A stretch of DNA of 64,000 nucleotides, taken from Heterotrichella gracilis (Eukaryota; Sar; Xanthophyceae; Tribonematales; Xanthonemataceae). This document shows positions 11,896 through 45,508 of this stretch, one piece after another. The notes under the pieces were generated by a model. The model was not told the origin of the DNA and made no database searches. It saw nothing but the letters and a program-made list of their open reading frames with translations. The translations under genes were made by a program, and so were the position numbers. The first letter of the stretch is position 1; the number at the start of each line of letters is the position of its first letter. Location: contig JAULBX010025386.1 in NCBI GenBank assembly GCA_032358255.1, positions 186,001 through 250,000 on the forward strand, read 5' to 3'.

Positions 11896-12437
11896 TCACC
11901 TAAGGTGGCGGAGGACGCGGGTGTCAGCTTCCTGCATGACGTTGGAGCCGAACAGCAAGGTCCTGTTGCTGTTGCCGGAGGTGGGTTTGAAAAGTGCTGT
12001 GACATCACGCAGCGGCTGCCGAGTCCTCAGCAGCTGTTGCGGAGACAGAGGGCAGACGTGCACGTTTGGGCTCACTGCAAGCGACAAGGGGAACGGTGTG
12101 AGGCACTCGGACGGGCAGCAGCGGGAACCGGTCAGCCAGGTGGGCGAGGGTCTGCGTGCCAATGCATTGCAATGCAATGCATTGGTGGGCCACGCAACAC
12201 CAGACGAGCAAGAAGGACAGGTGGTGCGTGCAGGCGCGCGATGCGTTGCATAGTTGACACTAAGCACGGCATCAAACCTACAGGGCGGCTGCCTAACGCT
12301 AACGCAAGTAAACTGTGGCAAGTAACGCTAGGCATGTTGCCTTCCGTTACAAACCCAGCGGGGGGCCACTCACCATTCTCCTTCTCGTGAAGCACCTCGC
12401 GCGGAGGACTTCCAAAAGCGGCGAACTGGGCAGCCAT
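11896..12437 (-). CDS. Small KEN-box and D-box-like protein
   Basis: Two exons, 12437-12374 and 12074-11896, joined by a clean GT-AG intron, give 80 residues. Exon 1 reads MAAQFAAFGSPPREVLHEKEN, ending in a KEN tripeptide. Exon 2 contains SPQQLLRTRQPLRDVTALF, where RxxL followed by RDVT resembles a destruction box or the PLRDITN-type motif found in cyclins and small APC/C substrates such as plant Patronus-type securins. SP sites flank the KEN box. The inference is a cell-cycle-regulated short-lived protein; no homologue was identified by sequence. A splice donor CTTAG|GTGAAC overlaps the stop, so the protein could continue into exons below 11896. Coding status rests on the splice pattern and motifs only. 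Confidence 0.45.
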
Positions 12438-24924: not shown

Positions 24925-25464
24925 ATGAGGCTCCGGCCTCTCAATAGGTCCGTTTGCAAGCCGATCGACGTTACAAGCGAGGGAATAAACCTTTGCAAAG
25001 AGAGTGTGTGTAATGTGTGCGTTGATGCGCACTCGTCTGTACTAGACTGCGAGGGAGCCATTGCGTGCCTGGAACTCGCCACGGCCGCTCAAATCCTCTA
25101 CATCACTCGTATGGCTGCCTCCACCATACGGTTGATCAAAGAGGGCACCAAGGAGGTCATACGTGCGAAAGTGGGTGAACCAATCCCAGCCATGGTGGGA
25201 GACACTTTGGACCTGGGCAGGGCGGACATTGCTGACCCACCAACACAGTTTGCCTACCTCGTCGGGACTTTAACACCCGTGGCTATCACGCCGAATCCTC
25301 TGCAACTTCAACTGGTGCGGGTGTGCAGTTTGAGTGTCCGTTTGCTCTCTATTGGCCTGGTTGCACTTGTGTACACATCACGGACAACCCAACCACTGTC
25401 TCAGCTTTTTCTGTTTGTGGGCCACATCAAGCCAACACTTGAGCAGATACCTTTCATATCCTGA
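24925..25464 (+). CDS. Orphan ORF of 179 residues
   Basis: An ATG-initiated uninterrupted frame of 179 residues with a cysteine-rich start and a mid-section (TMRLIKEG-like helices, then PTQFAYLVGTLTPVAI) that does not match any family I know. It has no evident intron, unlike all neighbours, and sits next to the repeat cluster. It could be a chance ORF, a decayed mobile-element gene, or an intronless gene. It is not obviously joined to the GTPase gene 100 bases downstream. Confidence 0.25.
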   Translation: MRLRPLNRSVCKPIDVTSEGINLCKESVCNVCVDAHSSVLDCEGAIACLELATAAQILYITRMAASTIRLIKEGTKEVIRAKVGEPIPAMVGDTLDLGRADIADPPTQFAYLVGTLTPVAITPNPLQLQLVRVCSLSVRLLSIGLVALVYTSRTTQPLSQLFLFVGHIKPTLEQIPFIS

Positions 25465-25566
25465 TACACAGGCTCAAACACGTTTCCTGTGTCTGATCAG
25501 GTGCCAAACTCAACTCCCACTCCCCCATCGACCACCTCTGTCCTTGGACATCAAGTGTTTGCAACA

Positions 25567-28500
25567 ATGTCCAAGCAAGCCCAAAAGACACCTTGGGCCA
25601 AGAGGTCCTCGTTGGAAGATGGACAGGACACCCAGGCCTCCCAGAAAAGGCAAAAGGGACAGCAGAAGCCTTCGCCTTTGGAGTGCAATGAGATGCCACA
25701 CCTGAACCTCCTACCAAGGCGCTTGACGCGGGACGTCCGCATGACAGACAGAGGAGCTCCACGTCGTTTCCCAGCCCTCACTGGCTCCACCTCAGCACCA
25801 GGCTCTGGACGAGCACTAGCTCTAGGGCTGCTGCCATCAGCTGCGGCAGGGGGACAGGCATGGTACCACCGGTGGGAGACTCGTGGTCTGCAAGATGGGC
25901 TGGCCTGGATATTGTCCACCTGCAACAGGGTATTGGCCCAGGCAGAGCTTGTGCTGTGCACTCCTGCTGGCACTGATGGAAGGGCAGGTGGGTACACAGG
26001 ATACCGAGAGAAAACCCTTTAGCTTATTCCACACGTGTGGCCCCCTGTGACCCTGTTTCCCCTACCCTGTATATATCCCAGGGGCTTGTGTGCCGTCGTG
26101 CTCCTCTCTGTGTGTCCTCGCGGTTCGTTTGTGTTCCAACTATTTTTGTTCCCTATTGTTTCTCAGGTACCCTCCTCCCCTTGGAGCGCACCATCAGTCT
26201 GGCTAGGGTCATCGCCGACCTCCGTGACACCTTCTGCCAGCCAGAAACCCTCATCGGGGTGGTGGGCGACATCGGTGCAGGCAAATCCTCCCTGCTCAAC
26301 TGCCTGCTGGGCGAAGAGGAGCTGCTGCCTACCAGTGGCATGCGGGCCTGTACCGCTTGTGTGGTGGAGCTGCGCTACAGCGACTCCAGCAGGTGAGCTC
26401 AGGGTTAGAACATAGGGTTTTAAGTGAGTCCCTTAGGGTTTTACCTACCTGCATCCCCTCCAGCAAGTGCTCAGAAGCGATACCCGTTGGGGCAGAAAAT
26501 GCTTGAGAGGGTGGAGAACACATTCCATGCATAGGTTATGGCATAGGGTTTTCAGGTTGAGGTGCACCGCCTGTGCAATGGAGCAATGCTAAAACTCCTC
26601 CAAGGTGGGGAGCAGGAATCCATTAAATAAATATATACCGTAAATACCCCATCGCACATTTAACAAAACCCTAAACACTTTGCACCCGCATTCCTGCAGC
26701 TATCACGCCGAGGTGGAGTTCCTCTCCCAGGAGGAGTGGCAGGCACAGCTTGAAATGCTGTTTTACGACCTGTGGGATAAGGAGGATGGGAGGCTGAAGG
26801 TGACTCGCCTGCCTGACAAGGACTCGGTTGCAGGGGTGGCGCAGGCGACCATTGAGGCGGTTCTGGGCAAGGAGGTCCTGAGGTGAGTGAAAATCTTTGG
26901 GAAGAATTTCAAGGATGTGCAGTGTTCTACAAACCCTGAAAAGATGCTGCGGTTGTAGGCGCAGTGGTGGCGTGGGATCATTGCAATTGCGTGACCAGAT
27001 GCATGGGAGCACAGGCATTCATTAAGGCAGTGCTAGGCAGCTTTTATTCTATTAGTCAGTTAGTTAGTTACATGCATTCCAGCAATACAGCCAGATTTGC
27101 AGTCGGTCTTGCACATGCGGCGCCACGCAGCTCTTTCCTGGCACTGTTTGAACTACGTATTGATCCCACGCGACTTGAGGTCCTGCTGGAGTAAGTCAGC
27201 CCACGTGGCCCTTGCCTTACCTACCCCCGTTGCCCCCTCTACCCAAACACCATACATTTAGGAACCCTATCGTCTGATAAACGTCCTAAATGTCCCAACC
27301 AGCGTAGCCTAATGTCCCTGAGTTTGTCACCTATGCTTTGTTGCCCACGCTTGATAAGGAGAACGGAATTCTTTTATTCTGTGATTGTGACTATTGGACT
27401 CAGTGACCTGCTGCCAAGCCGTTTTCTGAAATGTTGTCATACAACTGTGATGGCTGACCTTTTGGTTTAATTACTTAAACCGCCCTACACTCCACACCCG
27501 TGCAATGGCAAGGCTCACAAAACAAACCTGGCACATATCCCAGTCCGTGCTTCCCTCCCCCCCTCCGCAGATCTTCCAACATCACTCTGGAGACCCTGAA
27601 ATTGGCCTCTACAAGTATCACCCAGCTGCTGGGCACCACCCCTTGCTTTGATGAGCAAAACGCCAATGATTTTGCCAGGGAGCTGAAATTCTACATTGGC
27701 AGCGCCACTGACCGCGATGCCCTCTCCCCCTGGCCCCTGGTCAAGGTGTTCAAGGTTCGCCACAACTGGGAGGTGAGCACAGTACTACAGAATCCCTACC
27801 AAATCCCTACAAATATTCTACAAACATCTATAGAAACCTTACATGGTGATAGACATCTGGAACAGCGATTAGCCACACGGCAGGTGCAAAGTGAATATAG
27901 TGAAACTTGATTCAGAGCTGAATGCCACATGATGACAGCAACTCTAACACGAATGGTTGTTTTGTCCCCATAGATTTTGTCCTCCGGTGCTGTGCTGGTG
28001 GATCTCCCTGGTATGGCGGATGCCAATGAGGCTCGTGGGAGGGTGGCTGAGAGGTATCTTGGGCAGTGCAAAGCCATTTGGATTGCGGCAGATATCACAC
28101 GCGCAATTGACAACCAATCTGCCAAGGTGGGTGTGGGTGGGAATAAATGTGAGAAGAAATAGATAAATAGATGCGTGCCGAGGTGAGGGTGACGGTGACC
28201 ACAATTTTGGTCACCCAAAACAAGGGTAATAATATAATAAATATGACCTTTGTTATCTTATGACCCTTGCTCGAAGAAGGAGAAGCAAAAAGGGATTAGA
28301 GTAGAGGATTTGTGCATCTAACGTATTATGGTAGGGAACATAGTTGGAATGAGGGTGACTTCATGGACAAGCAGGGCATTTCCGATTTGCTCCTCCTCCA
28401 TCGCACCTGTCCAACATGTCCCCTGCAACAATGACACCTTCAAGCCTAGATGCAAACCTAATCAGGCACCCTGAACCCTAATTCAGCACCCTAAATCCCA

Positions 28501-31500
28501 AGTTATCGCTGCAGAAGCTACTGAGCGATGAGTTCAGGATTCAGATGCTGATGCAAGGCAAGTACGGGGCAATCTCCTTCATCTGCACCAATTGGCATGG
28601 CATGTCTAACCTGCACACCATCTGTCTTGCAAGACAGATGGTGTGCAGGTTAGACAGGCCATCAACGACTTCTGCTCAAGCGACCTGGTGCATTAAACCC
28701 TAAACTCTATATGTTTTAGCACAAAGCTAAAACCCTACGGCACAAGATTAGCGTCTGTGCAACCACCAAACCGTTGAATGCTATGGCTCTGCCAAGATAT
28801 ATATGTTTTGCGTGGCTTTGAGCAAGGCTGATCAGTCGGCTGATCATCTGGCTGTGCCGGTTCTGCTGGAACTATAATTCATCAACTGATTGGGTCGCAG
28901 GAGAGGGATGGAGTTGCATACATCTGCCGAACCACTGGCTGCCCAAAGGAGCGCTTTGAGAAATGACAGGTAATTTGGGTGCAGGCACAAGGGCTCGAAA
29001 TTAAGTGCAAGGCAGTTATATATTTTAGTGTGCATACGCGTATACTGATCACTAGTGGAGGAGGTCCAACATTGAGGCTATTAGTGGGATTTCTGCCTGT
29101 TTTTATTGTTACTTGTCCTGTGGTTTGTTGTACATTCGATGAATTCTTTGTTACTGCACTACAAATTCAGACAGTTGGCATAGTGCTAATAACAAAGCCT
29201 TATACCAAGACAGCTTCCCAATGATAGTGCTTCATATTTTTGCAGGAAGACCTGAGAGGGCTACTTCAGCAGAAACACAACCTGAATAAGAAGATGGCTG
29301 CTGTTGGCAAAGATATCAATGCTTTGGAAACCACCAAAGTAAAGCTGACGAGGCAGATGGACAAGCAGCGTGCCGAGGCCCTGCAGGTAAATGAAATACA
29401 ATAGTGTAACACAGCTTGAATATAAGAAAAGGTGAACGTGTAAGTGAATAAGGCAAAGAAGAAATGCCACTCTACTAGACAGTTGACCCTCAGGTGCTCT
29501 GACCCTTCCGTCAACCAGCTCAAAAGATATTGTAGACTTGTTTTTCAGTTGTTCATCCTTGCAGGTGAGGAAGAGCGAGAGAGAGAACCAGGGCTGGGCA
29601 AGAAGGGACCAGGGAATAGGGGCCCAGTTGGGCCGCAAGGACTGGGCAATCTCAAGCTCGGATGGTGATGATGATGACCCGGACCAGGAATCCAAGGAGG
29701 AGGAGGAGGAGGAGTACCTTGTGAGTGATGGGGGTGATCGGAGGTGGTGATCACACATAGAGGTGGTGGTGATGGGGTGGACACAATGATGATCAGGGAA
29801 ATCTTGCGATTGTAATCAATACCCTTTGCAATCCCTCTAAGCACTTCCAGTGCGGTTGCCTGAGTCACGCTTTCCCCATGTCGCAGGATGACGCATGCGA
29901 AGCCGTCAGTGTCATCCACTGCCAGCTTGACGAAGTCAAGGCGGTAAATCCTACTAAAACCTAGACCAAACCCTAATTGTGTACCCCACCAAACTACACT
30001 TTGCTGTCCCCGTTCCACTTATAGGAGTTATGCTACCTGCGTTAAGAGCAGGCACCGCAGTGAAGCTCAAAGGTGGCCAACAGTGTAGTACAAATGTACA
30101 TGTTAAATGGCACGATGTGGCATCAAGCCAAGTATACAAATGCGCAGGGCGCCCTGTGCTGCATTCACTGTTTCCTTTCTTATTCACCCGCAATAGGTAC
30201 GCCGCCTGTCAGTGCACCATCCTGTCCCCTACGCTGTCTGAAAGTGCCTATGTGCAACATGCGCATTTTGCAATTGTCCCTCTGCCTGTCGTACTTTTTT
30301 CCTCCCGTTTTTCACGCAGGAGTTGCTCCCCTGCACTACACGCAGGGCAAGCTATATGGAGCATTCAACTTTGGTGACTGAATGCACCATGTGCGCATTG
30401 TTGAGTATCATTTGGCATCAATCCACACTCAACTCAATCAACACACAACTATTACTCGTCGAGCTCAAATTACAGAGTCATATTAATTACAAAATAATAA
30501 TGATGAGCACTCGTTGAGACATTACAGGTATACAACTCCCAGCATTGTCTCACTATTTCCCTCCCCGTATCTCCCTGCAGGCGTCACTTACCCTGGACCG
30601 CGAGCAGGCCAAGCTGCATAAACGCCTGGACAGTGTCAACGGAAAGATAGCGGGCACTGAATTACTATTGAAGGGCGTGTGTGCCAGAGCACGCAACAGC
30701 TACAGCAAGGAGTGCTTGAAGAAGGATTTCAAGGAGGGGCTTGAGGTAACTGCTGTCGGACAGCATGGGATGAGTGGGTTTGATGTGGATGCTGGGACAT
30801 AGATGGAGGGGAAAATTTGTGAAGGTTGGCTATGTCCTCTATTCTTTGGCTGACATAGGTAGCACAAAGGGTGCGGATCACGGCGCAACTGATCGGCCAC
30901 CATCTGTTTCACTAGAGACAGCGCTAGAAGAGCACCGGCAAACCCTAACCCCCTAGCCTGTGGTTCCCGCAGGAGATGCGGCTCCAAGCCGGCGATGGCT
31001 CCCCCCCCGCCACTGTCCTGGAGGTTGACCTGCCTGTGTTCTGTGTGAGCGCAACGGATGCACAAGCGCTGGAGTCACGGGGAGGGTTGGGCGGGCAGGC
31101 GAGCACCTTCACCCGGCTGAAGTACACTGGGGTAAGGAAGGTTGCTGTTGAGGCATTGGCATGAGGTGGGATTGAATTGGCACAGAGTGGGTTCTGTTTC
31201 CGATTATATTCCCCCTAAGTTTAGCGCAGGCCCCATGCACTTCCGGACGCATGCTTTTCGTATACTTGCGGTGTTGCCTTCCCCAAAGCACATTGTATGT
31301 AACTCTGCAACGGTGCCCATACATGCCTCAATGACAAACCCCTGCGGATGTTCTTCCTTCCCTGCTTGCAAGATCTTCACTTGTTTGCGCATGTGCAGCA
31401 GCTGACCCAATTTGACCCCATGACCAGCCAAATTGCCAGGATCAATTACCCCCGCCTACTGTCGCCAAGGTCTGCCCTTCAGTGTGAAATTTACCTGTTA

Positions 31501-34500
31501 ACATCCTACTATATCCCTTACCCCTTGCAGGTTCCCCAGCTGCGCGTACATGTACGGGAGCTGGCCCAGCCTGCCCGTGACAACCTGGCCTGCAAAATTG
31601 CATCGGCCACAACCCACGTCCTGGCCACCAGCACCAGCGCCCTGATGAATGCCGGGGAGTTTGGCGCCAAGCAGAGGCAGGCAATGGAGGAGCTTTTCAA
31701 GGGTCAATGTGTAGACATGAAGGAGAGGATGGAGGGGATGCTGGGGAGGTGCGCCTGCTCCTAATCTCCCTCATGTTTTGAACCCCTCTGCAGCCTGCTT
31801 AGGTTGGATCCAGGTCCATTTTGCAGTTTGGGCTCATTTGAGATCAGAGATTTGATCTTACAATCCATCAACATCATTACTGTGTCATACCTATGGTATG
31901 CTTACACAGTCCCTATCTCCCACGTAACAGCATTCCTGACCAAATCCAACACGCACTGCCCATCCTTGTCTGTGCTTTAACACACCTAGTGGCATTTGCA
32001 TGCAGTTAGGTGTATAGGTCACATTGCAACGCCAAATGCGTGGTTTTCAGCTAATTGACAATTGGGCTGTCAATGTTTGGCTTTGCATATTAACCAACTT
32101 AGCATCGTCTAATACCTGTACAGCATTGCGTACAATAATTTTTACACACGTTATATTCACCAGCTCACTTGTCCATCTGTTTTACTGCAACACCGCTGTT
32201 CAAATTATTTATGACCAAAAAACACTCGATCAAAGTAGAACTTTCTATTTAAGAACTTTTTGTCACTCTGTTAATTGAAATAAAAAACATAGTTTTCATT
32301 GCTGTTACAGGTGGTCCAGTGCCTTCCTCCAGCTGTTCACCCAAGGACGCGTAGCACTGTCGCTGACCGTCGGGGTGCGCCGGGCCCAAGAGAGGGCACA
32401 GGCTACTAGTGAAGGCTGGAGCAAGCCTGCAAGGGAAGGAGGCCTAGGCCTCCATTACAAGACGTTTAACGTGCGGGAAATGCTAGGCATCTTCCTTTAC
32501 CCTGCAACCAGATGCAAGGGTAACCTGTCCAGGGGCTACGCGGCATGCAATTACCCCCCCAAATTGGTCATGGCACTCAAAAGGGAAACCAATCAGCACC
32601 AGGAATCCTCAGAACATGTAGTTGTCAATGTGTGACATGTGCTTCCTTCCTGCTGTTGTGACAACCAGCTCAAAAACAGCCTTAAGCAATTGCAAAAGCT
32701 GGACAGTCTTTGTGCCTTTGTATACCTTTCTTTGTTTCCAGCGGGTTGACAGTCTAGTTGTGTATAACTTTCTTTGTTATTATGCTTATTCTGCAGGCAA
32801 CTGTAAGTCGCGGACGGGATGGGTGCTACTCGGACGGTAAGAAGCCAACCAACTTCAACAGAGACCTTGCTGCACCCATCAAAAGTGCAATTGGACTGGA
32901 ATGGGAGGGGCTGTTCTCGTCTGTCAGTTCCAAACTGGAGTAAGTGCCACAAATTGGGTCAGGATGTGGGCCATGGGGTGGGGTGCCTGTGTTTGTGGGC
33001 AATGGAAGCCCCGTCATGCATACCATTCACAGAATGGACTACAAAGAGTGACCAGGTTGTCACGTGATCAGATTTTAACTGTGAGTAGTAGCGCAGCCTG
33101 TGGCAACCCTGCCGCCGTCTGTCTGCCAGAGTTCTGCTAGCTTTAGGATATAGGGGTAGGGTTGTTGCCTACTCTAGCCGCGGCGGCCATGCAAGGTTGA
33201 AATTGTTGCAAGCTTCTTCACACACTTATTGCACAAATTCCTTCGTTGCTTGTTTTCTCCTTACTACAGGTATATGGTAAGCTTGATGCACATGTAGCCT
33301 TCCCAGACCATGTTAATTTTGCGCAACATGATCAACAGCAGTATATATAGTCTACTATATTTCAATTTGGATAACACCATTTTGTGGTCCCACGGCTTCA
33401 ATCCATCTCCACTGTTCTGTCGACGGCAAACTGAGGAGTCCAAATTTGCCCCTCTGTGCAGGGATTTCTGCACCTCCTACACTTCAATCCTCAGGTCCTT
33501 TCTGGCAGAAACCAAGCCAGGGTTGCTTGAAAATGGTCTGGACGAGGCATACTTGCAGCGTGTGGAGCAGCAGGTGAAAGCTTACGATAAACACCCGTTG
33601 CATCACAGCACTGTTCGTAGGCCCGGAGTGGCTTGGCACATTCAAGGCTGTCAGCCGTAAGTTCCTCCTGCCTGGAGCAATTTAATATTCCTGTTGGCAT
33701 GGCTTGCCACCGGTGGATCATCCAGGATGGGTTGGAATCTGTAAGCAGCACACCTGCAGTGCATGGAGGACAGGAGGTGGTCCTATCTGACCTCTGAATA
33801 CACAATGGTGTCAACAAGACTCTTCTGAGAAGTGCTGGATGTCGTATGCCATATGGTCACTGTCACCTGGCTGAAAATGATAAGGAAAAAATACTTTCCA
33901 TATGGTTTTTTCATACCTACTTTAAACCGTTGCACAGGTGTTGGTTGATGAAGTCTTGCAGGTAGAGCTGTCTACTGAGCTCTAGTATGAAGTCCCGCAG
34001 GAAGGCCTGCGGGACCCACATCACCAACAAGCAGGAAAGAATTTCCCGCACTGCCATCACGCCCATCGTCAAGGGGGCAATGCTGCCGGCATACGCTGCG
34101 TGAGTAGCCGACAAAAAAGTCTGCACTGATACAGAAATCACCTCACACATATCCTGCACGATGTGAATATTTGACGTGGGAGCAGCGCGATGTTTTGAGA
34201 TTGGCATGTCCAAGATCATTCCCAAGCTGCCCCTAGGGCTCCTGGCACATACCCGTCCTAGGTTTTAAAGTCCTGCCATGGGTTTCTGAGCTGTTCTGAG
34301 TTCCTTGCTAACTCATTCTCACAGGCGTGGAGGCCATTACAAGCGCATGGCGCTTCCAAAATCCTGCTTAGGGTTCTTGGCACACACCCTTCCATCGTCT
34401 AAACCCTGCCATAGGGTTTCTGGCGCATGCCTTTGCACCCTCCACGCCCCAGAGTTCCCTGCCATAGGATTTCTGATCTTCATTTTTGATGCAGGTGTGA

Positions 34501-36029
34501 CGCTGAGAGTGGCCCGGGCCACTACAAGCGCATGGCGGCCATCATGCGCAGACACATGGCCAACACACACATGACAATGTTCACAGCAGTCCAAGGTAAG
34601 ACATGTATAATATCTAAGAAATCAGATGTGCATTGTTGTGGCTGATGTCTGCAAAATCATTATGACAACTATTCCAATCAGTGTAAGAAAAACTAAATTT
34701 GTTGATTTTAGCAAGATAATTTCCGGAACACAGGCAGCGGAAAAAATCTCCACATGCGCTGCCTGTGTTTAAGCTTCTGCTCCCCACCTATTCAACCCGT
34801 TGTTGCAGCAGCAATTGCTTATAGCTTATAACATGTGAAACGAGCACCTGTTTGAGGGGGTCGTATTCATTTATTCATTCACCCATCACCCCCTTTCATT
34901 CGTGTCCTTTCTTTGTGTAGACAAAGTGCTGCAGCAGTTGGAAGAGGTTGCTCGAGACGTGGAGGAAATGCTTGCTGCTGGACTTGGGGAGATGCTGCAG
35001 CGGGTGATGGAGGCGTTCCAGGACATGTGGTATGTTACCTTTGTGCATTGACATGGCTGGGGTTTGATATCATCTCTGACGAGTCCGCCAACCAATAGGG
35101 TTTACTCTAGAGCTAGGGCACAGACGGAGCACGAAAGTGGAGGCGCGTTCAATTTAGTGGGCCTTGCGCAATCGGCTTACTTGCGCAAAACCCTGGGAGC
35201 AACTTATCTGGAATTGAGTACTGTGCTTTCCAAATCTGATTGTTTTACCAACCTGTGTATCCCCCATATTTCCTACATTCCTGCTTTTCCCCTTCAGGGA
35301 GGAGCGCCTGGTTGCGCCAGGTAAATTGGGCCGTATAATAAATGTAGTGTCCAGAAGTGAAATGTTAACTAGTAAAGTGTTGAACTTGTACCGTATACGA
35401 ATTTAATATATTGTCCGCATGGATTTCGAATTGTACTGTACTTGTAACCATAGTGGTGCTTAGCGTCACACACCTTTCAAAGTATACATCATGTAAGTTA
35501 CCAAATTGCCACCCATGTTTTTCATGAATGCCCCATCCCCTCGTGCAGGGTGGAGCCCGTAAGCGACCTTCCCCGCCGCCAAGCCGCCATTGCGCAGCTG
35601 CAGGGCCTGCTTGAAGAGGTGGGGCAGGTGTGCGAGCAGGCGGGGATAGACATCCCGGCCCTGGATGATGGGGGCTTGGCACTTGAGGCTGAAGGGGCTG
35701 AGGAGGTTGGAGAGGATGATGGGGCTGAGGCTGAGGAGACAGAGGAAACAGAGGAGACTGAGCAGGCTGAGCAGGCTGAGGAGGTTGAGGCTGGGGGCCC
35801 TAAGGAGGCAGAATATGAGTCTGAAGAGTCTGATGAGGAGCCTGAACAGGACGAGGAGCTTGGGCAGGCTCTGGCAGAGGGTGAGGCTGCGGGTGAGGCT
35901 GCAGCTGAGTTCGAAGGAGCAGAGGCTGGGGAGGTTGAGCAGGCTGTTGCGGCTGAGGCTGAGGTGGATCGTGTGCCTTTGAGTACTCGGAGGGAGCTGC
36001 TATCTCAGGGCTTTCTGCAGATGAGTTGA
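25567..36029 (+). CDS. Large nuclear GTPase, SLIP-GC/dynamin-like
   Basis: Dynamin-superfamily GTPase resembling vertebrate nuclear GTPase SLIP-GC and its fungal relatives. Proposed exons: 25567-25987, 26167-26392, 26700-26882, 27571-27772, 27974-28126, 28515-28687, 29246-29386, 29565-29720, 29887-29943, 30581-30745, 30973-31131, 31531-31748, 32311-32470, 32797-32939, 33462-33573, 33966-34099, 34495-34595, 34921-35029, 35549-36029. G1 is GDIGAGKSS (174-182), the switch I threonine lies in MRACTACVVELRY, and G3 is VDLPG (353-357). Helical and coiled-coil segments follow (LRGLLQQKHNLNKKM, ARARNSYSKECLKKDF), then the conserved LPVFCVSATDA and GLHYKTFNATVSRGRDG blocks, and a Glu-rich tail. Basic clusters near the start could act in nuclear import. 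Exon 6 contains a 35-nt inverted-duplication insertion that breaks the frame; without it all exons form one frame of 1152 residues. The start of the 33966 exon is uncertain. As given, the gene may be damaged. Confidence 0.8.
28603..28656. repeat. Perfect 54-nt palindrome in GTPase exon 6
   Basis: Every base from 28603 to 28629 pairs with 28656 to 28630, with no loop. The right half is in frame with TNCKTDGV, which fits the G4 (TKxD-like) region; the left half is its inverted copy. Bases 28593-28627 (35 nt) are the apparent insertion. Confidence 0.95.
34228..34494 (+). pseudogene. Tandem repeat with broken copy of GTPase exon 18
   Basis: In the intron before the exon at 34495 the segment 34332-34352 matches 34517-34537 of the exon at 20 of 21 positions (GGCCAYTACAAGCGCATGGCG). 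Surrounding text is also repeated: TCTTGGCACACACCC... and CCTGCCATAGGGTTTCTG occur in two to three degenerate copies about 145 bases apart. The first copy has an acceptor-like CTCACAG but its frame and donor are lost, so it reads as a dead exon. Confidence 0.7.
35665..35985 (+). repeat. Glu-rich low-complexity coding repeat
   Basis: The last GTPase exon carries imperfect GAGGCTGAG/GAGACAGAG repeats coding for an acidic tail (AEETEETEETEQAEQAEE). Such tracts expand by slippage; here the frame is kept. Confidence 0.8.
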
Positions 36030-36170
36030 GGAAGGCAGGGATTCACAAATGCCTGGGAAACCTTGAGGGGTATAAATTCAGTGAGTGTTAACAGGGTGTC
36101 TATATATACCTCCTTCTGTGTGCCATTAGTTTTGAACCCAATGTCGAAAACCCTCATTGAGTGACTTGTT

Positions 36171-36175
36171 TGTAA
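36171..36175 (+). promoter_or_regulatory. TGTAA polyadenylation signal, GTPase gene
   Basis: TGTAA 142 bases after the stop codon; this pentamer is the usual poly(A) signal in chlorophyte nuclear genes. Confidence 0.45.
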
Positions 36176-37931
36176 GCCAATGATTTGGGATATATTGACT
36201 CTCACCTCCTGCTGAGACAATGCCTCTTTAACCGTTGATATGAACTGTACAGTTGGGTGTATACATGCATGTGAGGTTTCTATCTTTTACATGATAATCG
36301 ATTATTGATGATCATCAATTGCTGTCTGGCAGAGGGCCAGGGTGGATGCGGGTGAAGCAGGAGGAAGGGGCGGAGCCCTGATGGATGGGGGATGTTGCAA
36401 GGATGATTTCTCGAAGCTTTAGGGGATTCAGGGGAGGAGTTGAACAAGAATGACTCAGTGAGATGACATGATGGGGATCCATGATGGGAATTTGAAGGTT
36501 GCTGGGGAGCAAATGCTCTCTGGGACTTTGGAAGGAGAAGGACCGTAAGGTCAATTGAAGCTGCTTCCTCTCCAGGGATGCAGTGGGCAAGCGGGACTCC
36601 TCACCTAGACAATTATAATTAGGAGGTCCTTGGACCAAACATGATGATGAAAAAAATTGTAGATGATGATTAAAGTTTTGCTGCCAATTTGCCAAAGCCA
36701 TATAATGTGCGCCGACAGCGTACTAGTTTGGGCTGCAGCGCATGCGCTATATAATACACCATGACAAGGTGCAGGGGCTTATCATACGAGTTGTACAGTG
36801 TCAGATGGCAACTACTCTGGTGTGACATTCAAACTGTAACAGGTTTCATGTGGAACACCAGTATTTTTTAAGGATTTTAAAAAGCTCAGACAAGTATACA
36901 CGGAGAGAGTGCATGCTGTCCACATTGCGCATGCCACATGCATGCATGTCTAGAGTACCTCTGTTGGCCATGCCAAGGTGCAGGCTGCTTGTGGCATGAC
37001 AAGACTTGGCGCATTGTGGCAGAACACGGTGATAAATTCCTTTCCTACAAATTTTGTTACGTGCGTCCATGTAAAGAACATCACATTGATGTGGCCACCG
37101 GTGTATGATCTTCTGTGGGTGTACCGTGTTTTTCAAAGAGACAGCAGCAGGCTTATTACTAATGCTTCTCCAACATGCCTGCTATGCTCGTGCCATTGCC
37201 AATGCCACTGCCAGGTTCTCAGTGGATGCATTAAGCTCTCGCATGCATGCCAAGCGCAAGCCATCCAATGTGCCTCACATAGCTCTTCTGGTGCCCACTG
37301 AAGCCATGCTGGGCCACCATACAGCCACACTGAAGCTGCGGTCCTTGAGCTTGAGTATATTCCAAGATCCAGCTCCAGCAGATGCTCCGCCAGCCTGATC
37401 AATCGACTCAGACTTGAGTATGGGCGGAGTGGACGCATGCCACTTATGTCAGAATGCACATGCTTGATCCGGCAATCGTGGGCCCTGGTTTGGGCCAGTT
37501 CTCCTGCAAGCAACCACATCGTATAGGGTTTAGGGTGAAATGTTAGGGTTTAGGGCCAGTTCTGATGCAAGCAACCACATTGTTTTGTGGTTAACAGGTG
37601 ATTAGCAGCATGCTGATTAGACAACACCACAATGACAGGTCATGTTGCAGGTGCATCACGAAATCGCAAACATGCAAGCAAGCATGACATGGGAACCTGT
37701 GCATGCAACATAATTGTGCAGCCATTTGAATACCAATCTCAGCCTTTGGGCACTGCGTATGCAGTCACCACTGTTGCCCTGTTGGCAATAGTAACCTTTA
37801 CCTGACATAAACCGGCACAATGAAGACACTCTTATGCAGTAACGCCCAATATTCTGCCATTATCCGCGTCATTGTTCACAACTTTGCACAGTAGGTATTG
37901 AGAAGCCCTGGCAAGGGTTTACAGCAGGTGT
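36176..37931. other. Convergent spacer
   Basis: Between the GTPase gene (+) and the Cys-rich gene (-). Contains a telomere-like tract at 37523-37556 (TAGGGTTTAGGG, interrupted) and several GCATGC-type palindromes near 36930-36950 and 37240. A minus-strand frame at 37519-37133 has no recognised domain. No gene supported. Confidence 0.45.
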
Positions 37932-43081: not shown

Positions 43082-45508
43082 ATGAAGGACAGCGTGTACT
43101 TTGTAACTGGGAGCACGGATGGTATTGGCCAGCATACCGCCCGGCGCTTGGCAGCAACTGGTGCAACAGTTCTGGTACATGGCAGGTAGGGACGGCCACA
43201 GGTTTTAAGGGCGCCTTATCTGGTTTCAGGGTTTAAGCACAATTCCTTGTTGGATCATGGACGTGTCAACGTTGCCAGTGTTGCAGCCAGCTGCACGGTG
43301 AGCCCTGCCTTGGTATACCTCCCGCTCAGCCGCTCGGCCGTAGTGCGTGCACCAGGCACACCCTATCCACCCGCCTGTGGCCCTCAAATTCCACAGCGTT
43401 GACACCACCTGACTTTGCTGCATCTACCTGGCAGAGCAACGCCAGCGTTGCTCTGCCAGGGGGGTCAACTATTGTGTTTACGGCGGCAGTGTCAGTGGCA
43501 AACAGGGCATTCAAGGTGGCATGGCTGGGGTAGGGTACCGGTTTAGCGTTCAGGTAGTCTTGGATTGAGTTGAATGGCCCTGCCTGAGACCCTACATGCG
43601 GAAAGTGGTTCATGATTACCAGGTGCATGTGCAGCCATGTTAAACGCTTGGTACTATTCATTGCAGGACTGCAAAGCGGGTAGAAGACACCGTGGCAGGC
43701 ATCAAGTCTGCCACCGGCAATGACCAAGTGCATGGGTACTGCTACGACCTCTCATCATTAGACCAGATCAGGCAGCTGGCAGACGATGTGAAGCGATGCC
43801 ACCCCAAAATAGATGTGCTCATCAACAATGCAGGTGGGCGTCTATCACCCTCACTAGCATCTCCTTCGAGTCTCCTGGTTATTGTCATACACAGAATGGT
43901 ATAAGCAGGGCATCTTCACCGCTTGTGGAGTTTTAGGCACTTGTGCATGCATGTGTGTGGCTGCAATGTGGGCGCACACAAACCTTGTTGCGGTGTCTGG
44001 GTGAGGTGTGATCAGGGGTTTTCAGCCAGCCCCTGAAGCAGTCAATTAACACTTAGGGTTTAGGGTGCGCACCTGGTTGCCAAAAAGTGCGCGATGAGCG
44101 AGGTGGGCTCCTCGGCATACACCGTGGAGATGAGGTCTTTCACCCCAGTGGGCAGCAGCGTTAAAATCTTATTTCTTGGTTGTTTCAAACAATGTTTGCT
44201 CAATTATTGCTTTGTTTTTTCAGGTGTATTCGAGCAGTCCATGAAGAAGTCGGTGGATGGGTTTGAGATGACGTGGGCGGTGAATGTACTGGCTCCGTTC
44301 CTGCTCACCTCCCTGCTCCTGGACCGCATCACCAGGCGCATTGTGAACGTCAGCTCACTGTCTGCCTCCAGCCAGATTGACTTCAACAACTTGAACCAGG
44401 TAGGTGCTGCATTGGCTTGTGTCGAGGATGGCAGTGCTGGCATGTGAGTGGCAAATGGACGGTCCATTCGTGGTAACTTTGCACATAAGGTAGTTGGTTA
44501 CGTGCATTCCTGGTGACTTTTCGAGCATCGTGGATGGTAGCTCAGCAGTTCAGATCAGCAGGCAGCTTGCAAAGCCGGCGTAGAGCATACATCTTTATAT
44601 TTCAAATTCTACAATGGTAATGAAATGGCAATGAAAGAATAGAAGCAGAGAAAAAGGAAAGTGAAAAGAGGCATGGCGCCCCTGCAGGAGCGCGGTTTCA
44701 GCTCGCACAACGCCTACTCCCTGTCCAAGCTTGCCTCCATGCTGTTCACCTATCAGCTGGCGGAGCGACTGAAGCCACGTGGCATTACAGTCAACTGCCT
44801 GGACCCTGGCACCGTCAACACCAAGATGCTGTATGCGGGCTGGGGGCCCTGCGGCATTGATCTCAAGGTGGGTGCAATGTAAAGAAACACTAAAAATGTG
44901 CTGTAATGTAAATGCCGTACAGCCCTTGGGGTTGGGGTGCGGCCGGGCTTTCGGGACAATTCATTTTGTTCGGAGGTTGGGAGGTCATCAGTGTGAACCA
45001 GCTGCTGCATGCCGTGCGACTTTATCAAGGCAGCAGGCATCTGCTGTCTGGACAGATCTTCCTCTGGACTCTGATCATGCCATGAATGACATTTCGCCCC
45101 TATGATTGAGCCAGGTCAAACCTCCGCCAGGCACACTGTCCTATCTCAATGTTGTATACCTGAATTCGAGGTTCTTTTACAATGCCGTTGCATGCTATGC
45201 CTCACTGCAGCCCACCTACGAATTCAAACCGCTGCCACGGTGGGCGACCACCTTTGGCTAAAACCAATCATCTTTCTTTTTCCTAACTTGTGCATTGCAA
45301 ACATACAATACCTCAATTTTAACCACTGCAGGATGCCAATGACGAGTTCTTTCTTGCTACGGACCCATCCTTGGACGCTGTCACGGGGAAGTATTTCGTG
45401 TACAGCAAGCAGCGCCAGTCCCCCTCAGTGTCGCACGACAAGGCGGTGCAGAAAAAGCTGTGGGCGATAATGGAGGAGCAATCAGGGGCCAGCTACCCTG
45501 CCAATTAA
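43082..45508 (+). CDS. Short-chain dehydrogenase/reductase
   Basis: NAD(P)-dependent oxidoreductase of the classical SDR family. Five exons: 43082-43185, 43667-43833, 44224-44399, 44688-44867, 45332-45508; continuous frame, 267 residues. The cofactor motif TGSTDGIG (9-16) sits four residues after the start, with NNAG at 88-91, the active-site Asn at 111, Ser about 135 (NVSSLSASS) and the catalytic YSLSK (159-163). The arrangement resembles retinol dehydrogenase/RDH12- or WWOX-like and plant TIC32-like SDRs, but the substrate cannot be read from sequence. There is no N-terminal targeting signal; the protein begins right at the Rossmann fold, so it is probably cytosolic. Intron 2 holds a TTTAGGG tract (44052-44067). 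Confidence 0.93.

What the first reader, a model, noticed from the sequence alone, without database searches (positions are those of the whole stretch)
28593..28656. Fold-back inverted duplication breaks the GTPase G4 region
A perfect, loop-free 54-nt palindrome lies inside a conserved exon. Removing 28593-28627 (35 nt) restores a frame reading ICTN then CKTDGVQVRQ, as expected for the nucleotide-specificity loop of this GTPase family. With the insertion the frame is lost. Either the gene is newly inactivated by a template-switch event, or the palindrome is a sequencing/assembly artefact. The inverted half also happens to carry a CTAAC and pyrimidine-rich stretch ending in GCAAG, so a cryptic splice use is conceivable.
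Basis: partly seen in the sequence, partly recalled or inferred. Interest (0 to 1): 0.75.

Follow-up and report, generated by a model that had tools for sequence, protein, structure and literature searches.

The report
Fold-back duplication inside algal GTPase gene
A copying error seems to have pasted a short backwards copy of a gene's own sequence into an algal GTPase gene, whose next exon also carries a stop, so the gene is probably dead; the error is of a known kind.

Summary
The palindrome is in the assembly and far beyond chance: arms 28597-28629 and 28630-28662 (33+33 nt, no loop, one mismatch; perfect core 28603-28656). A search of its own 68.5-Mb assembly found only itself. It lies in exon 6 of a 20-exon model of a SLIP-GC-type (dynamin-like) GTPase gene of a green alga; nearest relative found: Symbiochloris. 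The right arm is the gene's own coding sequence (KTDGVQVRQ, G4 loop); the left arm is the copy. In 90 of 101 scored relatives G4 is contiguous, so the net insertion is 41 nt, not 35. 18 of 19 exon junctions keep phase; exon 6 to 7 does not. As the window stands, the shifted frame passes that TGA and stops in exon 8. No GT/GC-AG intron inside exon 6 keeps both frame and KTD. Best reading: a short-range template-switch inverted duplication in a young pseudogene or null allele; such mutations are known in yeast and apes. An assembly error cannot be excluded without reads. In passing: a dispersed ~47-bp palindromic repeat, at least 40 places.

The parts
25567..36029 (+). SLIP-GC-type (dynamin-like) GTPase gene, 20-exon model placed by hand; first exon (25567-25987) and last exon (35549-36029) are the least certain
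   Evidence: Homology; borders and phase:
26167..26392 (+). Exon 2, G1/P-loop (GDIGAGKSS)
   Evidence: Dynamin_N 1.4e-17 for the joined exons
27974..28126 (+). Exon 5, G3 (VDLPG)
28515..28687 (+). Exon 6, carrying the insertion; 173 nt, of which 132 remain (phase 0 to 0) if 41 are counted as added
28590..28630 (+). 41-nt net insertion between the ICT and KTD codons (placement ambiguous by a few nt because CAA stands at both ends)
   Evidence: G4 spacing in relatives; phase break at the exon 6/7 junction
28597..28629 (-). Left arm: inverted copy of 28630-28662, one mismatch (28602)
28630..28662 (+). Right arm: the gene's own coding sequence, KTDGVQVRQ (G4 and after)
28603..28656 (.). Perfect 54-nt loop-free palindrome core
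28901..28969 (+). Exon 7 (ERDGVAYICRTTGCPKERFEK*Q in the expected frame), TGA as second-last codon: second lesion
   Evidence: 0 of 2000 shuffles as good against Symbiochloris P0074 and Micractinium P0076; not significant against five other algae

Best explanation
A DNA polymerase switched template while copying exon 6 of this algal SLIP-GC-like GTPase gene, copied about 33 nt of the adjacent exon in reverse and then went back. The result is a net 41-nt insertion that makes a loop-free palindrome and shifts the frame at the G4 motif. The next exon also has a TGA in the expected frame, while the rest of about 3.5 kb of modelled coding sequence is open, so the gene is a young pseudogene or a null allele of this strain. 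Shown: the palindrome, which arm matches the family, the size of the insertion against the family, the phase break, the TGA in an exon recognisable by homology, no second copy found in the searches answered. Inferred: that the event was a replicative template switch, which lesion came first, and that no working protein is made.
For: Right arm encodes KTDGVQVRQ where relatives have KTDD..., left arm is its reverse complement. G4 contiguous in 90 of 101 scored relatives. 18 of 19 modelled junctions keep phase; the break is at exon 6 to 7. Insert bounded by CAA on both sides, with an uneven left shoulder and one mismatch. The joined flanks contain 6-bp inverted repeats at the site (CATCTG/CAGATG and CTGCAC/GTGCAG) that could help a stalled strand fold. 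Exon 7 holds a TGA in the expected frame; as the window stands the shifted frame ends eight bases into exon 8. One locus for a 236-nt DNA query and for a 77-aa protein query. Precedents: a 66-bp insertion after a 55-bp fold-back copy in rad27-delta yeast (PMC5677150, passages and part 1 of one section); template switches copying up to 128 nt in great apes (PMC7954356, passages and one section).
Against: No close relative with the exon was found (best Symbiochloris, 51% over 265 aa), so the ancestral DNA is inferred from proteins. No reads or RNA. The exon borders were placed by hand at AG/GT sites and at least one donor (exon 16) was chosen with phase in mind, so the phase tally is not a blind test. 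A loop-free centre is harder for a simple snap-back and favours switching to the other strand; the bases left of the copy are not fully explained. Apart from the two lesions the gene is open, which also fits a working gene with local sequence errors. Exon 7 homology was significant for 2 of 7 algal relatives only.
Confidence: 0.74

Rival explanations
1. Assembly or library artefact: a fold-back chimera or bad local consensus put an inverted copy into a gene that is intact in the cell.
For: The rest of the modelled gene is open; one locus only in this assembly; no read data. The contig has a gap of 100 N elsewhere (L014) and two of four other contigs sampled have a very different composition. 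A second unique loop-free 48-nt palindrome on the same contig could be an artefact of the same kind.
Against: No N in the window; the mismatch and altered shoulder beside the copy look like real mutation; a second lesion, a TGA, sits in exon 7, although that too could be a base error.
Confidence: 0.17
2. The gene still makes a protein by leaving out exons 6 and 7 together, so that exon 5 joins exon 8 in frame.
For: Exon 5 ends and exon 8 begins in phase 0; both lesions fall in these two exons; a -70.9 kcal/mol fold around the palindrome could hinder recognition of exon 6.
Against: The product would lack the stretch that carries G4, so it should not bind GTP properly (inference); no RNA evidence.
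Confidence: 0.04
3. The palindrome, or part of it, is removed as a tiny intron.
For: A 50-nt GT-AG stretch (28604-28653) would restore the downstream frame.
Against: It removes KTD. Of the 52 in-frame, stop-free candidates of at least 25 nt inside exon 6, none with GT/GC-AG ends keeps KTD; six AT-AC ones do, with ends unlike the minor-class consensus (recalled). The model's introns are 166-688 nt, and with the frame restored the exon 7 TGA would be read.
Confidence: 0.02
4. A mobile palindromic element inserted here, like the dispersed 47-bp palindromes of this genome.
For: Such a family exists in this genome and is nearly loop-free too.
Against: The exon palindrome matched only itself, one arm is the gene's own family-conserved coding sequence, and the longest repeat shared by the two flanks is 5 nt.
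Confidence: 0.02

Closest known systems
Palindrome expansion / template-switching insertions in rad27-delta yeast (PMC5677150)
   Same: Insertion made by copying adjacent sequence in reverse; comparable size (66-bp insertion after a 55-bp fold-back copy, text to their Figure 6).
   Different: Theirs were seen arising in a mutant line, and that one expanded a pre-existing 15-bp palindrome; here the event is inferred in an alga and only 6-bp inverted repeats are seen at the joined flanks.
Short-range template switches in great apes, four-point model (PMC7954356)
   Same: One nearby inverted repeat created by two switches; the orders 1-4-3-2 and 3-2-1-4 that make single inverted repeats are their majority patterns.
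   Different: Copied stretch 33 nt against their median of 12 (maximum 128); here no aligned ancestral sequence, so no likelihood test was made.
Nuclear GTPase SLIP-GC family (Dynamin_N, PF00350; many with PF24564)
   Same: G domain up to ICT aligns to Symbiochloris P0074 at 51% over 265 aa and the part after the coil at 30% over 468 aa.
   Different: G4 interrupted by a frameshifting insertion, and a TGA in the next exon.

Membership tests
Short-range template-switch mutation | Inserted sequence is the reverse complement of adjacent sequence | tested here: met
   33 of the 41 nt, one mismatch
Short-range template-switch mutation | Ancestral state known, insertion polarised | tested here: inconclusive
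   Polarised at protein level only: right arm fits the family; no close relative found
Short-range template-switch mutation | Four-point model fits better than an ordinary indel by likelihood | not tested
   Needs an aligned ancestral sequence
SLIP-GC / dynamin-like GTPase | Dynamin_N domain with G1 and G3 | tested here: met
   PF00350 1.4e-17, 64.7 bits against a cut-off of 27; GDIGAGKSS and VDLPG
SLIP-GC / dynamin-like GTPase | Intact G4 (T-K-x-D) in frame | tested here: not met
   Frame lost before KTD in the sequence as it stands; so it is a broken member
Pseudogene | At least one lesion that truncates the product | tested here: met
   Frameshift in exon 6, ending in exon 8 as the window stands; TGA in exon 7 in the expected frame
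Pseudogene | No functional product / relaxed selection | not testable with these tools
   No RNA, no close relatives for dN/dS
Palindromic MITE | Several dispersed copies | tested here: not met
   Only itself
Palindromic MITE | Flanking target-site duplication | tested here: not met
   Longest shared flank 5 nt, at unequal distances from the arms; only CAA stands at both ends of the insert

The most novel reading that the evidence does not exclude
This alga's genome has a raised rate of loop-free inverted duplication, perhaps from weak flap or hairpin processing, so that single-copy perfect palindromes of about 50 nt occur roughly once per 130 kb and sometimes kill genes. Evidence so far: two that matched only themselves (54 and 48 nt) in 254 kb of one contig, and 9 of 27 inverted repeats with spacer 0-50 having spacer 0-2. 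Of these nine, one belongs to the dispersed family, two were tested as unique, six were not tested. Against it: 40 kb of four other contigs had none with spacer 0-2, and eukaryotes in general are enriched for spacer-free palindromes (PMC13155455, passages).
Probability: 0.1. Interest if true: 0.5.

Novelty: new member of a known kind. Interest (0 to 1): 0.27.

Why it matters
It is a clean single-copy example of a short fold-back duplication disrupting a conserved motif, and shows how such an event can silently cut a gene model. If reads confirm it, it marks a gene loss in a green alga and gives a locus for testing whether loop-free palindromes arise often in this genome. If reads do not confirm it, it is a warning about assemblies.

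Tried and rejected
Selenocysteine or another reading of the exon 7 TGA: no SECIS among the 5 matches at E up to 1 in 25300-36600; the aligned residue is Ala in Symbiochloris and Leu in Micractinium conductrix. The microRNA matches on the palindrome (best mir-3927, 42.3 bits against a cut-off of 90) only reflect a perfect hairpin. Paralogue rescue: no second locus for a 236-nt DNA query or a 77-aa protein query; a search with the full Symbiochloris protein did not complete. A first exon table had several borders off by one to a few nt and read those exons out of frame; it is replaced. Literature, listings only: template switch + inverted repeat + pseudogene + green alga, 3 papers, none on this by title and abstract start; SLIP-GC and Trebouxia + palindrome, nothing used; led to the three papers opened; (MITE/Mutator/palindrome), nothing opened.

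Full report
What is there. The window holds a loop-free inverted repeat with arms 28597-28629 and 28630-28662, 33 nt each, with one mismatch (28602 A, 28657 G) and a perfect 54-nt core at 28603-28656. Among perfect inverted repeats with spacers up to 20 nt it has the longest arms (27) in the 254,249 nt of its contig that I held (the window, 19 stretches of 10 kb and one of 249 nt), while ten Markov-1 sequences of that length had longest loop-free arms of 8-10 nt. The window lies at C288:186001-250000 of a 68.5-Mb assembly of 903 contigs. A 236-nt query over the site found only itself and its own opposite strand.

What gene it is in. Joined exon translations from the window match Dynamin_N (PF00350, 1.4e-17) and SLIP-GC-type GTPases: 73 proteins with a 574-aa query and 58 with a 1023-aa query, together 109 distinct proteins, plus six short ones with a 143-aa query. 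In some searches only the roughly 8000 candidates sharing most words were scored. The best is a 1343-aa protein of Symbiochloris irregularis (P0074), 51% identical over 265 aa of the G domain and 30% over 468 aa of the later part. Other good matches are from Micractinium, Chlamydomonas, Astrephomene and Volvox. So the host is a green alga, probably a trebouxiophyte (inference). Guided by these, I placed 20 exons from 25567 to 36029 by hand; the 19 acceptors are AG and the 19 donors GT. Because I chose the borders at such sites, and one donor (exon 16) partly for its phase, this is a consistency check and not a blind test.

Which arm is old, and how much was added. The right arm reads KTDGVQVRQ directly after the centre, and relatives have KTDD-like residues directly after SFICT. 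Of 109 proteins, 101 had a recognisable G3; of these, 90 had the G4 residues contiguous by a fixed pattern. Of the other 11, by eye six are also contiguous but cut short or atypical (P0002, P0016, P0021, P0032, P0042, P0061), four lack the stretch (P0018, P0028, P0030, P0040) and one is too divergent to say (P0049). The net insertion relative to the family is therefore 41 nt (28590-28630, with a few nt of ambiguity because CAA stands at both ends). Phase agrees: 18 of 19 junctions fit and exon 6 to exon 7 does not, by the remainder that 41 nt leaves (35 nt would leave the same remainder, so this supports the insertion and not its exact size).

A second lesion. Exon 7 (28901-28969, 69 nt) reads ERDGVAYICRTTGCPKERFEK*Q in the expected frame. 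It aligns with the matching stretch of Symbiochloris (DGIQGVCEYAQIPREDFEKAQ) and of Micractinium conductrix, each with 0 of 2000 shuffles scoring as high. For the other five algal proteins tested the alignment was not significant: 165, 509, 370, 444 and 1355 of 2000 shuffles (P0075, P0077, P0078, P0079, P0001). Taken exon by exon in the expected frame, this TGA is the only stop before the terminal one. No SECIS element was found. The two lesions do not simply add: read as the window stands, exon 6 shifts the frame, exon 7 is open in that frame, and the stop comes eight bases into exon 8. Either way the product ends soon after ICT.

Splicing. Inside exon 6, 52 candidate introns of at least 25 nt (GT/GC-AG or AT-AC) leave the exon in frame without a stop. 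None of the GT/GC-AG ones keeps KTD; six AT-AC ones do, with ends unlike the minor-class consensus (recalled). The model's introns measure 166-688 nt. Leaving out exons 6 and 7 together would keep the frame, but the product would lack G4; this is a weak rival.

Mechanism. The left arm copies the adjacent downstream exon in reverse and ends where the old reading resumes. That is the product expected when a polymerase switches to the other strand, or back on its own strand, and returns. Six-bp inverted repeats (CATCTG/CAGATG, CTGCAC/GTGCAG) stand at the joined flanks. The shoulder (TTGGCATGGCATG against an expected TTGATGGCCTG) shows changes at or after the event; this is my reading. Yeast lacking Rad27 makes insertions of this kind, one of 66 bp after a 55-bp copy (PMC5677150, passages and part 1 of one section). 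In great apes, template-switch copies have a median of 12 and a maximum of 128 nt, and the two switch orders that make single inverted repeats are the majority patterns (PMC7954356, passages and one section). So the kind of mutation is known.

Real or artefact. No reads are available. Against an artefact: the mismatch, the changed shoulder, the second lesion, no N in the window. For it: an otherwise open, apparently single-copy gene and a composite-looking assembly (two of four sampled other contigs have 35-36% GC and CpG observed/expected of 0.93-1.17, against 51-57% and 0.47-0.61 in the 10-kb stretches of C288, C50 and C150). I put the artefact at about one in six.

Wider context. Among 27 inverted repeats with arm score 12 or more and spacer 0-50 in 254 kb, 9 have a spacer of 0-2. 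One of these belongs to a dispersed family, two matched only themselves (the exon one and L021:8955-9002), and six were not tested. Forty kb from four other contigs had none with spacer 0-2, but two of those contigs are of the odd composition. A survey of 118,019 genomes reports that eukaryotes are generally enriched for spacer-free palindromes (PMC13155455, passages), so this alone is not remarkable.

Verdict. Ordinary in kind, a clean example, with a second lesion that makes loss of the gene more likely than the palindrome alone would.

Noticed in passing
L008:1810-1860 (C288:31810-31860): A nearly loop-free palindrome of about 47 bp (AGGGGTATAC...GTATACCCCT) belongs to a dispersed family: 82 hits counting both strands, at 40 places on 40 contigs by my count, a lower bound (40 of 44 candidates scored). 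In the three copies read, 9 of 9, 8 of 9 and 8 of 9 flanking bases repeat on the other side. It looks like a very small Mutator-like MITE (label recalled, not tested).
   Followed up: partly
L021:8955-9002 (C288:168955-169002): Another perfect loop-free palindrome, 48 nt, on the same contig; a DNA search matched only itself.
   Followed up: partly
window 43427-43460: 34-nt inverted repeat, 16-nt perfect arms, 2-nt centre.
   Followed up: no
window 12159-12185: 27-nt palindrome, 13-nt arms, 1-nt centre, made of ATGCATTGCA-like repeats.
   Followed up: no
L017:3020-3284: Inverted repeat with 115-nt arms (14 mismatches) and a 35-nt loop, perhaps a foldback element.
   Followed up: no
L025 (C1:20001-30000) and L027 (C100:20001-30000): 35-36% GC and CpG observed/expected of 0.93-1.17, unlike C288, C50 and C150 (51-57%, 0.47-0.61): these contigs may come from another organism or compartment.
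   Followed up: no
L005-L023: The telomere-type heptamer TTTAGGG/CCCTAAA occurs 83 times in 190 kb, both strands counted, against about 23 expected for a random 7-mer (own arithmetic).
   Followed up: no
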